Origin: Chloroflexota bacterium
GTDB lineage: Bacteria > Chloroflexota > Anaerolineae > Anaerolineales > VGOW01
Direction: 5' to 3'
Assembly: GCA_016197225.1 (NCBI GenBank)
Contig: JACPWC010000059.1
Location: 36,862 to 100,861, forward strand
Length of the DNA stretch: 64,000 bases
The position numbers were made by a program, and so were the translations under genes. Position 1 is the stretch's first letter, and each line of letters opens with the position of its first letter. The notes beneath the pieces were generated by a model. It worked only from the letters and a program-made list of their open reading frames with translations, was not told the origin of the DNA and did no database searches. Of this stretch, positions 29,543 to 33,348 are shown piece by piece.

Positions 29543-32500
29543 ATGGACCCCGCCACCTTCGCCCTCATCGCCTCCGCCCCCGGCCCGGCGTTGGTCACCG
29601 TCTTCACCAAACTGGCCGAGAAGGGCGTGATAGACCCGGCCCTCGAAAAGGGCCTGGAGCCTTTCCGGGACTGGCTCACGGGCGGCTACAACGTGAAGAA
29701 GGACGAGGCCCGGCTGGCGAAGGCCTTGCAGGCCGCCCTGCCTGCCGACGAAAAAGATACCCGGCTGTTCTTCGCCTTCAGTGACCTCAGAGCCAGCCCC
29801 GGCCTCGCAACCCGCGCCGCCGCCGCCGTCGTGGAAATGACGACCGACGACCCGGCCCGCCTGCCGCCCGACCTTTTGCGCGACTTGAAGCTGGATGATT
29901 CGCACCGCCCGGCGCTGGCGACGGCGCTGTTCAAACTGCGGGTTGAGTTGGTGAAGGTGGAGGGGTTTGGCGATGGGATTCGGTATGCTGACCAATTGGA
30001 TCAGCGCGGCCTGTTGCGCGAGACGCTGGGCCACGCCCGTCGGGAGATTGAAATTGACGAAGCCTTTTTGGCTGACCGCCGCCTGACGACTGATGATGAG
30101 AAAGCGTTGCGGGATTACATAGCGCTTGTCCGCGAGCAGTTGCGCTACATGCCATTGCCGCTCGCCCGCCGCAGTGGGCCGGAGGCGCGGGCCGACGCTC
30201 AACTGGCCGAAGTGTTTGTGCCGCTTACCTTGCGCGACCCGCAGGAGGAAGAAAAAGCCCGCCGCCGCGTTGACCTGACTTCCCGCTCCTCTTTCTCGAA
30301 AAGGCAGGGGGAAATTGATCATGAAGAAATCAAACCGGCTTCGCTTAGCGATGTATTCAACCGTCACCCGTGTTTTCTGCTGAAGGGGCCGCCCGGTTCC
30401 GGCAAAACTACACTCCTGCGTCGCGCCGGTTTGGCTTTTGCCGAAGGCAGCGCCCAGGCTGATCTCGATTGGAATGGCCCGACGCTCTTGCCCGTCTTTG
30501 TTCGTCTGCGCAACTTCGGCGTGTTTCTGGGCGAGAATCGAGCGCGGTTCACCAGCCCCGCGCCGGGCGCGCTCACCGAGTTTATGGAGCATTACTTCCG
30601 CAATGAGCATCGGTTGTCGCTTTCGGCGGGTTTCTTTGACCGCCGTTTGGCCGAAGGCCGTTGCTTGATCCTGCTCGACGGATTGGACGAAGTGGCCGCA
30701 ATTCGAGCTGAAGTCGCCCAGCATGTCAACGCGTTCATTCGCCACTTTGCCGACAAGGGCAACCGCTTTGGGCTGGCCTCGCGGCCTAAAGGTTACGAGT
30801 CGGTGGAAGTGTATCTGCGCCCCGCCGCGCCTGCCATCGCCGATGTCAACCCGCTGGGCCCAGATGGCATCCGCCAATTGGTGAGCAACCTTGTCCAATC
30901 GCTTGAGTCGAATCCAGCGCAACGGGCTAAAGACTCTGCCGATCTCCCTCAGCGGATTCTGGCCTCGCGCGATTTGACGTTCATCGCCAGCACGCCGTTA
31001 TTCTGCACGGCGCTGGTGTTGGTTTACAAGTATCACGGGGCGCAGTTGCCTCAGCGCCGGGTGGAAGTCTATCAAGAGATTGTGGACTTGTTGCTCGGCT
31101 TTTGGAAAGCGCAGGAGCGCGAACTAGCCCGCGCTCACGAACTGGCGCAGGAGGACGGCACGGGCGCGGCCTTCGCCGATGTGGCCAAGGCAGTGGCGAT
31201 CAAAAAGAGCCGCTTGGCGCACCTGGCTTTGTGGATGCAAACCGAGCGACTGACCGACGCCCCAACGGCCCGCGCCCGCGCCGCCCTGGCCGACTATTTG
31301 CGCCGCCAAGAGCGCAAAGACGAAGCCACTGCTGACTCGTGGGCTGAAAATTTTTTGCTCAATTCGCACGAACGGAGCGGCCTCCTTGTCGAAATAGAGG
31401 CCGGGAAGCACACCTTCACCCATCAGGGCTTCCGCGAATATCTGGCGGCGACGGCGCTGGTGAGCAAAAGTGATGACGAGTTTGTGCGCACGGCGCTGGC
31501 CCATCTTGCCGATGACTGGTGGGAGCAGGTGATCCTTCTGGCTGGCGCTTACCCGGGGCCGCTGGAGGCAAAGCGCGCGTCCCTGATCAACGCCATCCTC
31601 GCCGCCGCCGCTGACCCAAATGCTGAACCAGGCGCTCGCCACGCTCGCCTGCTCATGGCCGGACAGTGCGCGGTGGACATGGCCGGTTACCTCCCCGGCC
31701 CGGAACAAGACCTGGTCGAGCGCGCCTTGATCCACCTCATGCGCGACACCGACCCCGCCAGCGCCGACTACCCAAACGATCAACCCCTCCACTCTCCACC
31801 CTCCACTCTCTCCCCACGCACCCGCCTCGCCGCCGGCGAACTCCTCGACGCGCTGGGCTGGACGCCGCCGGACTTGTTTGACTTTGTCCCGGTATATAAC
31901 ACGGATTGGTGGAATTTAACGGATTCCGATCCGTTAAATTCCACCAATCCGTTGTTCTTCCTCTCCCGTTTCCCCGTCACCAACATCCAATATCAACGCT
32001 TCCTCGACTCGGACGATTACGACAAAGCCACCATCTGGCAGAACGTGGCCGCCTTCGACGCCGACCAGAAGACGCCGACGCGAAACATGGGCGACGAAGC
32101 GTGGAAGTGGTTTCAAAAGAACGGCGGCAAGGAGCGCAGGCCGGTTTATTGGGATGACCCGCGCTTCGGCGCGACCCGCCGCCTCTTCCCGGTCGTCGGC
32201 GTCACCTGGTACGAAGCCGCCGCTTACTGCGTCTGGCTTTCGCATCATTGGCGTGAATGGCCCGAAGCTTCTAACCTCCAACCTCCAACTTCCAACCTCC
32301 AGTTCCGCCTGCCGACCGAAGACGAGTGGGAGAAGGCCGCCGGAGGCAAGTGGAAAGACCCGAAAGTGGAGAAGGAGAAGCCGCGTTACGCCTGGCAAAA
32401 GACTCCGGCGAAAGTGAAGGGCGATGAGATTGTGATTGCGAAGCATGCCAACACTTCCGAGTCTGACCTGGGCGGAACAACACCGGTGTGCATGTACCCG

Positions 32501-32725
32501 GCTGGCATGAGTCTTGCAAAAGTAATGGACATGAGCGGGAATGTGTGGGAGTGGCAGGCGAACCTTTACGGGAAGGACAATAATTGGCGCGCATTGCGTG
32601 GCGGCGCATGGTATAGTGATGCTGAGGACGTACCCGCTTCGGCGCGCCACGGCTCCCTCCCCGGCGACTGGGGCAACGGCTACGGTTTTCGGGTGTGCGC
32701 GGCGGCCTCTGTCTCTCGCTCTTGA
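29543..32725 (+). CDS. NACHT NTPase fused to FGE-sulfatase (CLec-fold) domain; DGR target protein
   Basis: 1060 residues. Residues 1-260: an unrecognised helical N-terminal region, perhaps the effector or partner domain. Residues about 275-560: NACHT NTPase with GPPGSGKTTLLRRAG (about 282), Walker B CLILLDGLDEV (about 374) and FGLASRPKGYESV. Residues 560-780: helical arm. Residues about 807-1060: formylglycine-generating-enzyme/sulfatase-modifying fold (VVGVTWYEAAAYCVWL, FRLPTEDEWEKAAGG, MDMSGNVWEWQ, LRGGAWYSD, GFRVC). This fold tolerates massive sequence change in DGR targets. Residues 1031-1055 are the variable repeat, matched by the template at 32871. Two intergenic repeats are embedded in phase (787-804 and about 910-921). 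Probable ligand-sensing signalling or defence protein; no catalytic FGE role is implied. Confidence 0.9.
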   Translation: MDPATFALIASAPGPALVTVFTKLAEKGVIDPALEKGLEPFRDWLTGGYNVKKDEARLAKALQAALPADEKDTRLFFAFSDLRASPGLATRAAAAVVEMTTDDPARLPPDLLRDLKLDDSHRPALATALFKLRVELVKVEGFGDGIRYADQLDQRGLLRETLGHARREIEIDEAFLADRRLTTDDEKALRDYIALVREQLRYMPLPLARRSGPEARADAQLAEVFVPLTLRDPQEEEKARRRVDLTSRSSFSKRQGEIDHEEIKPASLSDVFNRHPCFLLKGPPGSGKTTLLRRAGLAFAEGSAQADLDWNGPTLLPVFVRLRNFGVFLGENRARFTSPAPGALTEFMEHYFRNEHRLSLSAGFFDRRLAEGRCLILLDGLDEVAAIRAEVAQHVNAFIRHFADKGNRFGLASRPKGYESVEVYLRPAAPAIADVNPLGPDGIRQLVSNLVQSLESNPAQRAKDSADLPQRILASRDLTFIASTPLFCTALVLVYKYHGAQLPQRRVEVYQEIVDLLLGFWKAQERELARAHELAQEDGTGAAFADVAKAVAIKKSRLAHLALWMQTERLTDAPTARARAALADYLRRQERKDEATADSWAENFLLNSHERSGLLVEIEAGKHTFTHQGFREYLAATALVSKSDDEFVRTALAHLADDWWEQVILLAGAYPGPLEAKRASLINAILAAAADPNAEPGARHARLLMAGQCAVDMAGYLPGPEQDLVERALIHLMRDTDPASADYPNDQPLHSPPSTLSPRTRLAAGELLDALGWTPPDLFDFVPVYNTDWWNLTDSDPLNSTNPLFFLSRFPVTNIQYQRFLDSDDYDKATIWQNVAAFDADQKTPTRNMGDEAWKWFQKNGGKERRPVYWDDPRFGATRRLFPVVGVTWYEAAAYCVWLSHHWREWPEASNLQPPTSNLQFRLPTEDEWEKAAGGKWKDPKVEKEKPRYAWQKTPAKVKGDEIVIAKHANTSESDLGGTTPVCMYPAGMSLAKVMDMSGNVWEWQANLYGKDNNWRALRGGAWYSDAEDVPASARHGSLPGDWGNGYGFRVCAAASVSRS
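31901..31952. repeat. Perfect 23-bp palindrome inside the NACHT-FGE coding region
   Basis: Arms of 23 nt (31901-31923 and 31930-31952) are exact reverse complements around the loop ttccga. The insertion keeps the frame and adds TDWWNLTDSDPLNSTNP between the helical arm and the FGE domain. The same palindrome family occurs intergenically at 25836 and 33150-33348. Confidence 0.85.
32269..32303. repeat. ctaacctccaacctcc repeat inside the FGE domain
   Basis: Tandem aacctccaacttcc units encode SNLQPPTSNLQ in phase within the FGE domain, between ...CVWLSHHWREWPE and FRLPTEDEW, a loop position. The same DNA is intergenic at 17842 and 33372. Confidence 0.75.
32633..32706 (+). repeat. DGR variable repeat (VR)
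   Basis: Last 74 coding bases before the C-terminal tail of the NACHT-FGE protein. Aligned without gaps to the template at 32871-32944: 14 of 19 template A positions differ, and 1 of 55 others (one T to C). The final 23 nt, from ggttttcgg to gcggcggc, are identical and A-free, the position expected for the initiation of mutagenic homing site. Variable residues: P H G S L . G D . G N G Y. Confidence 0.92.
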
Positions 32726-32767
32726 ATTTCTGAACTTCTGAACTTCTGATTTCTGATCGCGATGAAG

Positions 32768-32782
32768 GGGCGCAAAGCGCCC
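32768..32782 (+). other. Hairpin downstream of the variable repeat
   Basis: gggcgc-aaa-gcgccc, 43 nt after the gene's stop and 61 nt after the VR. DGR targets often have a DNA hairpin just 3' of VR that aids homing; it could equally be a weak terminator. Confidence 0.45.
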
Positions 32783-32870
32783 TCGCGCAAAAATTTTCAG
32801 AAGGTGCGTGTAGTCAGCGAAAAAAGGTAGTGATAGGCAATACGTTGCCTTGCTATGGGGCCAGCCGTTT

Positions 32871-32944
32871 ACCGCTTCGGCGCGCAACAACAACCATCCC
32901 GACAACTGGAACAACAACAACGGTTTTCGGGTGTGCGCGGCGGC
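32871..32944 (+). repeat. DGR template repeat (TR)
   Basis: Non-coding 74-nt copy of the VR with AAC-rich content. In the VR frame it would read A-S-A-R-N-N-N-H-P-D-N-W-N-N-N-N-G-F-R-V, the classic form of DGR templates for FGE/CLec targets, since AAC codons can become 15 amino acids by A mutation without creating stops. It lies 164 nt downstream of the VR on the same strand. No reverse transcriptase ORF (no YxDD-type motif protein) or avd is visible nearby. Confidence 0.92.
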
Positions 32945-32965
32945 ATGACTCTCCGAAGTCTTGCT

Positions 32966-32986
32966 GGGCAGGAACGCTTCCTGCCC
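32966..32986 (+). other. Hairpin 3' of the template repeat
   Basis: gggcaggaa-cgc-ttcctgccc, a perfect 9-bp stem 21 nt after TR; outer flanks tgctgg/ccagca may extend it. Candidate structural part of the template RNA, or a transcription end. Confidence 0.5.
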
Positions 32987-33094
32987 CGTGCCAGCAGTGC
33001 TGACCGTTCACGGACGGCAGCCGAGGCCACCCACGAGAGACAGCGCGGTTGAGTCCCGTCCTGTCGCGCAAGCGATGGGGCAAATACAGAATAG

Positions 33095-33143
33095 CCCGGC
33101 CCCCTCTGGTACACCGCCTGCGCGGTGGAACGTTGGGGCCGGG
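33095..33143 (+). other. Nested stem structure
   Basis: Outer arms cccggcccc/ggggccggg enclose an inner stem caccgc/gcggtg. No gene in 32726-33414, so this could be structured RNA downstream of TR or another palindromic repeat. Confidence 0.45.
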
Positions 33144-33149
33144 CAATTT

Positions 33150-33348
33150 ACTGGACAACGGATTTGGTGAATTTGACGGATCGCGATTGCGGGCCGCAGA
33201 GCGCGGATTTTCGCGCAAAGCGTAAGCGGATCAGAATCCGCCCATTCAGGGAATCCGTGCTCTCTCCCTCTTCAGAACAACGGATTAACCGAACGCAAAG
33301 CGCGGATTGCGATCCGCTAACTCGGTTGATCCGTTGTTCTTCTTTTCA
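33150..33348. repeat. Cluster of aacggatt palindromic repeats
   Basis: Contains at least two copies; the right-hand one has 18-nt ends gaacaacggattaaccga and tcggttgatccgttgttc with a single mismatch. Fills the space between the DGR template and obg. No gene seen. Confidence 0.7.

What the first reader, a model, noticed from the sequence alone, without database searches (positions are those of the whole stretch)
32633..32944. Diversity-generating retroelement VR/TR pair on a NACHT-FGE gene
The gene's last 74-nt segment (32633-32706) aligns gap-free to a non-coding copy 164 nt downstream (32871-32944). By eye, 14 of 19 template adenines differ against 1 of 55 other positions. The template is AAC-rich (A-S-A-R-N-N-N-H-P-D-N-W-N-N-N-N if read in frame), the final 23 nt are identical and A-free, and the target domain is the FGE/C-type-lectin fold, as in known DGR targets. 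Only DGR mutagenic retrohoming is known to produce such A-specific change.
Basis: partly seen in the sequence, partly recalled or inferred. Interest (0 to 1): 0.95.

Follow-up and report, generated by a model that had tools for sequence, protein, structure and literature searches.

The report
Adenine-hypermutation cassette lacking its reverse transcriptase
The end of an immune-sensor-like (NACHT) gene differs from a template copy just downstream almost only at the template's adenines, the mark of a bacterial hypermutation system (a diversity-generating retroelement), but no reverse transcriptase lies beside it, so it is likely served by one encoded elsewhere in the genome.

Summary
It is a diversity-generating retroelement (DGR) cassette on a 1060-aa NACHT-FGE protein. 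The new part is what surrounds it. No reverse transcriptase (RT) or Avd gene lies near; the one DGR-like RT found in the assembly is on another contig, with a truncated Avd. The TR is followed by a structured RNA element (32987-33145) that recurs with strong covariation in Chloroflexota DGRs (38 of 40 pairs with changes on both sides). A same-genus species has a homologous RT-less cassette; at 20 non-adenine sites where the two templates differ, each VR matches its own template in 39 of 40 cases, the other's in 0, so retrohoming went on after the lineages split. Of 30 surveyed elements with at least 4 kb on both sides, 7 are likewise VR-TR-element cassettes without RT and Avd. I read these as non-autonomous cassettes with their own template, likely diversified in trans; stranded relics remain a serious rival (2 of 10 such genomes show no close DGR-type RT).

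The parts
29543..32725 (+). target gene: 1060-aa NACHT-FGE protein (NACHT at residues 279-449, about 30377-30889; FGE-sulfatase domain at residues 795-1051, about 31925-32695)
   Evidence: ORF; Pfam NACHT E 7.9e-8, FGE-sulfatase E 2.8e-32; 209 proteins at E <= 1e-20 among the 7995 candidates scored, best 120 listed
32633..32706 (+). variable repeat (VR)
   Evidence: 14 of 19 template A changed, 1 of 55 others
32683..32706 (+). 24 nt identical to TR and A-free, G+C-rich: place of the initiation-of-mutagenic-homing site (by analogy with BPP-1)
   Evidence: sequence; the role is inferred
32758..32787 (+). hairpin downstream of VR (6-7 bp core GGGCGC/GCGCCC), the place of the target-recognition hairpin of other DGRs; same core after the VR in L061
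   Evidence: on its own not above chance in the window (6 of 20 shuffles as good)
32871..32944 (+). template repeat (TR), non-coding, AAC-rich; lacks the 5' part present in the same-genus TR
32987..33145 (+). structured RNA element 3' of TR (linker (A/G)AATA.AGAA, terminal G+C-rich hairpin); place of the BPP-1 spacer RNA that recruits RT-Avd
   Evidence: 32945-33150 folds with z -5.1; R1/R2 models; 38 of 40 pairs with changes on both sides, 0 of 500 shuffles reach it; no Rfam match
33090..33148 (+). terminal hairpin of the element (arms 33090-33103 and 33135-33148)
   Evidence: helix 7: 98.1% of cells paired, 11 of 11 pairs with change on both sides

Best explanation
This is an RT-less diversity-generating retroelement cassette: a NACHT-FGE gene with a VR, its own TR and a conserved structured RNA element, likely diversified in trans by a DGR reverse transcriptase encoded elsewhere in the genome. 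Shown: the A-specific VR/TR pair, the covarying RNA element, the absence of an RT from the contig and of Avd from the neighbourhood, a DGR-like RT on another contig, concerted evolution of VR with its own TR in two species of the genus, and recurrence of the same architecture in other genomes of the class. Inferred: the TR and the element are transcribed together; the element is the handle that a distant RT (with Avd) binds; that RT copies the TR with errors at adenines; the cDNA replaces the VR up to the G+C-rich A-free end; and the varied FGE surface is the ligand-sensing face of a STAND-type defence or signalling protein.
For: A-specificity 14/19 against 1/55, p 3.5e-10. Own genome: 4 RT genes, none on the window's contig C59; one, on C116, is DGR-like: 356 aa, phrog_1423 E 8.5e-119, 73% identical to a relative's RT that sits in a VR-TR-element-RT-Avd locus (Avd there PF22296 E 4.9e-20). 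Same-genus cassette (L061, G002): 15 of 27 template A changed, 0 of 97 others (with looser ends 18 of 30 and 1 of 103), no RT on the stretch, and an in-frame TAG in the VR where the TR has AAG. Concerted evolution: 20 non-A sites differ between the two TRs; VR equals own TR 39 of 40, the other's 0 of 40. Element: of 12 R1 matches at E <= 1e-4 in 61 relatives, 7 were not used to build the model, and 6 of those 7 lie within 0.7 kb of a DGR-type RT match; all 7 genomes with such an element are among the 10 with such an RT match (some of these RT matches are fragments). Survey: of 60 top R2 matches, 30 have at least 4 kb on both sides; 15 of the 30 hold RT (150 bits or more) and Avd, 1 an RT fragment with Avd, 3 Avd only, 11 neither, and 7 of these 11 have an A-specific VR/TR pair. 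Their VR-TR start distance is 228-344 nt, against 1617-1744 nt in 14 of the 23 RT-and-Avd loci with a pair. A DGR-type RT lies elsewhere in 8 of 10 genomes with such a cassette (in one of the 8, G220, the main match covers only residues 9-250).
Against: No population variation of this VR could be measured. The C116 RT has only a truncated Avd (67 aa before a stop; the relative's is 121 aa) and a TR remnant beside it, and no other convincing Avd match was found in the assembly (next E 0.14), so the machinery may be incomplete today. The element in RT-less cassettes is in general not closer to the RT-linked element of the same genome than to others (window against C116: 0.56, rank 50). Two of 10 genomes with such a cassette (G332, G360) show no close DGR-type RT, and one single-contig genome with only an RT fragment at its cassette (L181, G283) still has 24 of 33 A changed and 0 of 67 others, so a relic can keep a perfect signature. 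Two RT-linked loci (L216, L225) have the same short VR-TR distance (291, 332 nt), so the layout can arise by loss of RT and Avd from that type. In G002 the cassette lies on the other side of obgE, so common descent at one site is not proven.
Confidence: 0.62

Rival explanations
1. Stranded relic: a complete DGR (such as VR-TR-element-RT-Avd of G026) lost RT and Avd recently, and the cassette now only keeps the record of past activity in cis.
For: L181 and L197 keep RT fragments between VR and Avd, which shows RT deletion as a route; L216 and L225 show the layout from which such a loss would leave VR-TR-element; G004 has a truncated RT and a shortened TR; C116 in this genome has lost half of Avd and part of its TR; G332 and G360 have cassettes without a close DGR-type RT.
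Against: Homologous cassettes in two species are both RT-less and each VR follows its own TR after divergence; in G002 the match is 97 of 97 non-A sites; the type recurs in 7 of 30 survey loci (and L205) with no RT remnant detected in the 7.
Confidence: 0.3
2. Cis-acting DGR split by assembly: the RT lies close by in the real chromosome but was placed on another contig.
For: 126 contigs; C116 ends 128 nt upstream of its RT gene.
Against: The cassette lies about 31 kb from one end and 66 kb from the other end of one continuous contig (C59, 100,861 nt) that holds no RT; obgE and nadD follow directly.
Confidence: 0.04
3. Ordinary duplication of the gene's 3' end followed by drift or A-biased substitution, without a DGR.
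For: A short near-repeat lies next to the gene.
Against: A-specific with all three products; the same in 39 of 60 surveyed loci for template A against 2, 7 and 3 of 60 for C, G and T; RT, Avd and covarying RNA in the family.
Confidence: 0.01

Closest known systems
Canonical DGR of Bordetella phage BPP-1 (Mtd, Avd, TR, bRT)
   Different: Here no RT and no Avd in the cassette; the TR stands directly after the target gene with its own structured RNA element; NACHT protein, not a tail protein
Thiohalocapsa PB-PSB1 DGRs on NACHT/STAND and MoxR conflict proteins (PMC10907252; passages and section 5 read)
   Same: NACHT-CLec targets, several DGR loci per genome, 'degenerate' loci without key machinery, trans activity proposed
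   Different: The trans targets described in the passages read (DGR 4, 5 and 1) match the TR of another locus; here the RT-less cassette has its own TR and RNA element
Partial DGRs of Nanoarchaeota DUSEL4 (PMC4372165; passages and section 6 read)
   Same: RT-less loci with A-directed VR; the authors left fossil or remote diversification open
   [quoted passage not shown] different targets; no cross-species concerted evolution or RNA-element survey in the passages read
Remote variable proteins of cyanobacteria (PMC7517822; passages read)
   Same: Targets more than 5 kb from the RT, CLec fold
   Different: Remote targets assigned to the genome's DGR by TR identity; no separate TR with each target in the passages read

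Membership tests
Diversity-generating retroelement (DGR) | VR/TR near-repeat with differences at template adenines | tested here: met
   14/19 A, 1/55 others, p 3.5e-10; homologous cassette 15/27 A, 0/97 others
Diversity-generating retroelement (DGR) | DGR-type reverse transcriptase in the cassette | tested here: not met
   No RVT_1 match on contig C59 at E <= 10; a DGR-like RT is on C116. Filed as an RT-less variant, not as a complete DGR
Diversity-generating retroelement (DGR) | accessory protein Avd in the cassette | tested here: not met
   Only a truncated Avd, on C116
Diversity-generating retroelement (DGR) | target with C-type-lectin-type fold, VR at the C terminus | tested here: met
Diversity-generating retroelement (DGR) | G+C-rich A-free identical end of VR and TR (IMH-like) | tested here: met
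   24 nt identical, A-free; its function not tested
Diversity-generating retroelement (DGR) | hairpin shortly after VR | tested here: inconclusive
   Present at VR end +61 to +77, but 6 of 20 shuffles are as good; over 42 cassettes median stem 7.5 against a mean of 5.0 in shuffles, 27 of 42 with 7 or more pairs
Diversity-generating retroelement (DGR) | structured RNA 3' of TR (BPP-1 spacer) | tested here: met
   Element 32987-33145, covariation; homology to the BPP-1 spacer and binding of RT not tested
Diversity-generating retroelement (DGR) | VR varies among strains, TR does not | not testable with these tools
Bacterial NACHT / STAND defence protein | NACHT NTPase with a C-terminal candidate sensor domain | tested here: met
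   NACHT E 7.9e-8 and C-terminal FGE; defence activity not tested; in PADLOC only a weak MkoA match, E 5.1e-6

The most novel reading that the evidence does not exclude
Anaerolineae keep non-autonomous hypermutation cassettes: dispersed NACHT-, TIR-, KAP- and CHAT-FGE sensor genes, each with its own template and a shared RNA handle but no reverse transcriptase, all diversified in trans by one or a few RT-Avd pairs, so that a genome holds a library of templates for one mutator.
Probability: 0.5. Interest if true: 0.78.

Novelty: new variant of a known kind. Interest (0 to 1): 0.62.

Why it matters
The global DGR survey says itself that it would not detect targets that are not next to the RT (PMC8144416, passage read). 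Cassettes that carry their own template and RNA handle but no RT would add a hidden set of hypermutating, immune-sensor-like genes, and the RNA model made here finds them without an RT. It also makes testable whether a DGR RT works on template RNAs made elsewhere in the genome through a conserved RNA element.

Tried and rejected
Tried without result: (1) Further VRs of the window TR in the genome: none convincing (the 12 FGE loci were among the loci scanned). (2) A VR for the C116 TR remnant: none in the assembly. (3) Rfam: no match. (4) Whether RT-less elements resemble the RT-linked element of their own genome: in general no, a result against a simple co-evolved handle. (5) The hairpin after the VR: clear for the set, not for the window alone. 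(6) phrog_1423 as a DGR marker: rejected, it also matches the C16 RT (E 9.3e-112), which I read as group-II-like, and only two candidates per genome were scored; one search was used instead. (7) L071 (G044) and L070 (G008 C239): short template-like matches, not examined for pairs and left out of the counts. (8) In one search the third RT of the search panel (L062) was translated out of frame and was useless; RT detection rested on the C116 and L067 RTs. One search repeated it with four RT types and found no RT in the 7 RT-less cassettes (best E 0.078), and an RT remnant in L197 (E 0.008). (9) L190 and L221 pairs (TR before the gene) lie at contig ends and were not counted as RT-less; L205 is 468 nt from a contig end and is named apart. 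(10) One search listed 120 rows; the top 60 of the 118 outside G000 were fetched. Five of the 60 (L168, L184, L198, L204, L213) share DNA with loci used to build R2; none of these is RT-less.

Changes made on checking: pooled non-A changes corrected to 6 of 516; distances to contig ends corrected; residues 248-251 of the model lie just before the VR, not inside it; the two RT-linked loci with short VR-TR distance were added.

Full report
OBSERVATION. The 74-nt pair is as described. VR 32633-32706 and TR 32871-32944 align without gaps; 14 of 19 template adenines and 1 of 55 other template positions differ (Fisher one-sided p 3.5e-10). With looser ends the count is 15 of 20 and 2 of 58. The adenines lie in codon positions 1 and 2 only. 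The rest of the window has nothing close (best other place 34 of 55 non-A positions), and in the 4.8-Mb assembly only the pair itself matches convincingly.

MACHINERY. The assembly holds four RT genes: C16 (490-aa ORF, group-II-like by my reading), C75 (next to a Cas6 domain ORF, E 6.5e-17), C114 (PADLOC RT_XIII, E 3.7e-91; a retron type as I recall) and C116. The C116 RT (L004) is DGR-like: its best PHROG match is a reverse transcriptase family at E 8.5e-119 (that family is not DGR-specific), it is 59-73% identical to RTs of relatives that stand with VR/TR pairs (L067, L062, L063, L069), and it carries IGNLTSQ, which I recall as the DGR-type motif. It is followed by an Avd that stops after 67 residues and by a short TR remnant, then by the same kind of RNA element (this copy was one of the five that built R1). 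The contig ends 128 nt upstream of the RT gene. No other convincing Avd match was found. None of the four RTs is on the window's contig.

RNA ELEMENT. DNA from behind the TR (about 32989-33144) recurs in relatives. In G026 it lies between TR and RT of a complete DGR. A covariance model from five sequences (R1) finds further copies beside RTs: of 12 matches at E <= 1e-4 in 61 relatives, 7 were not used to build it, and 6 of those 7 lie within 0.7 kb of an RT match. Genomes with a match at E <= 1e-4: 7; all are among the 10 with an RT match at E <= 1e-30 (several are fragments); three RT genomes (G021, G023, G037) had no such element match. On 29 aligned copies (A5) 89.7% of cells pair, 38 of 40 pairs show changes on both sides, covariation score 0.513 against 0.171 in shuffles (0 of 500 reach it) and at most 0.074 when partners are slid (the alignment was fitted to the structure, which favours it). 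No Rfam family matches. In BPP-1 the spacer between TR and RT folds and recruits bRT-Avd (PMC12875486, passage read), so a handle for RT-Avd is the likely role here; this is inference.

SAME-GENUS CASSETTE. G002 contig C99 (L061) has NACHT-FGE, VR, TR and element, and contig C47 overlaps its end by exactly 141 nt and leads to a nadD homologue. VR against TR: 15 of 27 A changed, 0 of 97 others; with looser ends 18 of 30 and 1 of 103. The VR has an in-frame TAG where the TR has AAG, which ends the 1093-aa frame, as adenine mutagenesis would do. Order in G002: permease piece, obgE, NACHT-FGE cassette, nadD; in the window: permease, NACHT-FGE cassette, obgE (Pfam GTP1_OBG E 8.2e-59), nadD (cytidylyltransferase-like, E 1.8e-22; my naming). 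The cassette thus sits in the same neighbourhood but on the other side of obgE; its protein is 49% (C-terminal) and 37% (N-terminal) identical, obgE 77%. A move, a rearrangement or two insertions are all possible.

CONCERTED EVOLUTION. In the aligned core 53 columns are non-A in both TRs; the TRs differ at 20. At these 20 the VRs match their own TR in 39 of 40 cases and the other TR in none. Retrohoming therefore happened in both lineages after the two cassettes separated.

HOW COMMON. R2 (29 sequences) matched 78 of 396 genomes of the class at E <= 0.01 (only 7 candidates per genome were scored). I fetched the top 60 of the 118 matches outside G000 with up to 6 kb on each side; 5 of the 60 share DNA with loci used to build R2, none of them RT-less. 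An A-specific pair is present in 39 of 60; the same search with C, G or T as the template base finds 2, 7 and 3 of 60, some of these being the same pairs seen from the VR. Thirty of 60 have at least 4 kb on both sides: RT (150 bits or more) and Avd 15, RT fragment and Avd 1, Avd without RT 3, neither 11; 7 of the 11 have a pair: L166 (18/29 A, 1/93 others), L169 (12/26, 0/79), L179 (9/18, 1/51), L199 (6/11, 1/33), L207 (19/27, 0/57), L214 (15/22, 1/66), L223 (11/19, 1/73). Pooled over these and L205, template A changes in 100 of 170 positions and other bases in 6 of 516. The VR-TR start distance in the 7 is 228-344 nt; in the 23 RT-and-Avd loci with a pair it is 1617-1744 nt in 14, while L216 and L225 have 291 and 332. 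Targets are FGE fused to TIR (L166, L169), KAP NTPase (L179, L214), NACHT (L207), CHAT (L223), a zinc ribbon (L199) and SAP (L205): mostly conflict-system-like proteins.

IS IT IN TRANS? For: 8 of 10 genomes with such cassettes (G000, G002, G349, G204, G343, G220, G274, G269) have a DGR-type RT elsewhere, though in G220 the main match covers only residues 9-250. A relic in a genome with other DGRs would look the same, so this is not decisive. Against: G332 and G360 have none at E <= 1e-15; L181 (a single-contig genome, G283) keeps a perfect signature with only an RT fragment at its cassette; RT remnants in L181 and L197 show decay; and elements in RT-less cassettes are in general not closer to the RT-linked element of their own genome. 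So the A-specific signature alone does not prove current trans action. The cross-species concerted evolution between two RT-less cassettes is the strongest point for it.

LITERATURE. Trans activity and degenerate loci are described for Thiohalocapsa PB-PSB1 (PMC10907252: passages and section 5), RT-less partial DGRs for Nanoarchaeota (PMC4372165: passages and section 6), remote targets for cyanobacteria (PMC7517822: passages); conflict systems with NACHT and FGS domains and DGRs in PMC7159879 (passages). In six paper searches and the passages read (one search gave no passage) I did not see RT-less cassettes with their own TR and a conserved RNA element described; papers outside the library were not searched.

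VERDICT. The finding is real and rightly named a DGR pair. Its interest lies in its being a member of a recurrent RT-less, own-template type. Confidence in trans service 0.62, relic 0.3.

Noticed in passing
window 31901-31952, 33155-33183, 33274-33340: A palindromic dispersed repeat (24-bp perfect arms) lies in frame in the linker before the FGE domain; related arms lie just downstream of the TR element, so the FGE-VR-TR-element module is flanked by copies of one repeat family. The family gives 34 matches (both strands counted) in the genome, one place on C116, the contig of the DGR-like RT. Module shuffling by these repeats is a possibility.
   Followed up: partly
G000 C114 (L003), C75 (L002), C16 (L001): Three further RTs: one matching PADLOC RT_XIII, one beside a Cas6 ORF, one group-II-like by my reading.
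   Followed up: no
G000 C38, C55, C85 contig ends: Three of 12 FGE domain matches in the genome lie at contig ends; the assembly may break at repeated FGE/DGR sequence, so VRs may be missing.
   Followed up: no
L188, L197, L218 (also L196, L200): Another architecture: VR-Avd-TR-element without a full RT; L197 keeps an RT remnant after the VR.
   Followed up: partly
L065 5755-6060 (G004 C22): TR shortened to GGAWNNNGFRVV with a well-kept RNA element and no VR pair found, next to a MurJ gene (Pfam E 5e-64); the G004 RT match stops at residue 203: a dying DGR.
   Followed up: partly
L178, L210, L215, L219: RNA elements with no RT, Avd or VR/TR pair detected within at least 4 kb; possibly solo template RNAs or decayed cassettes.
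   Followed up: no
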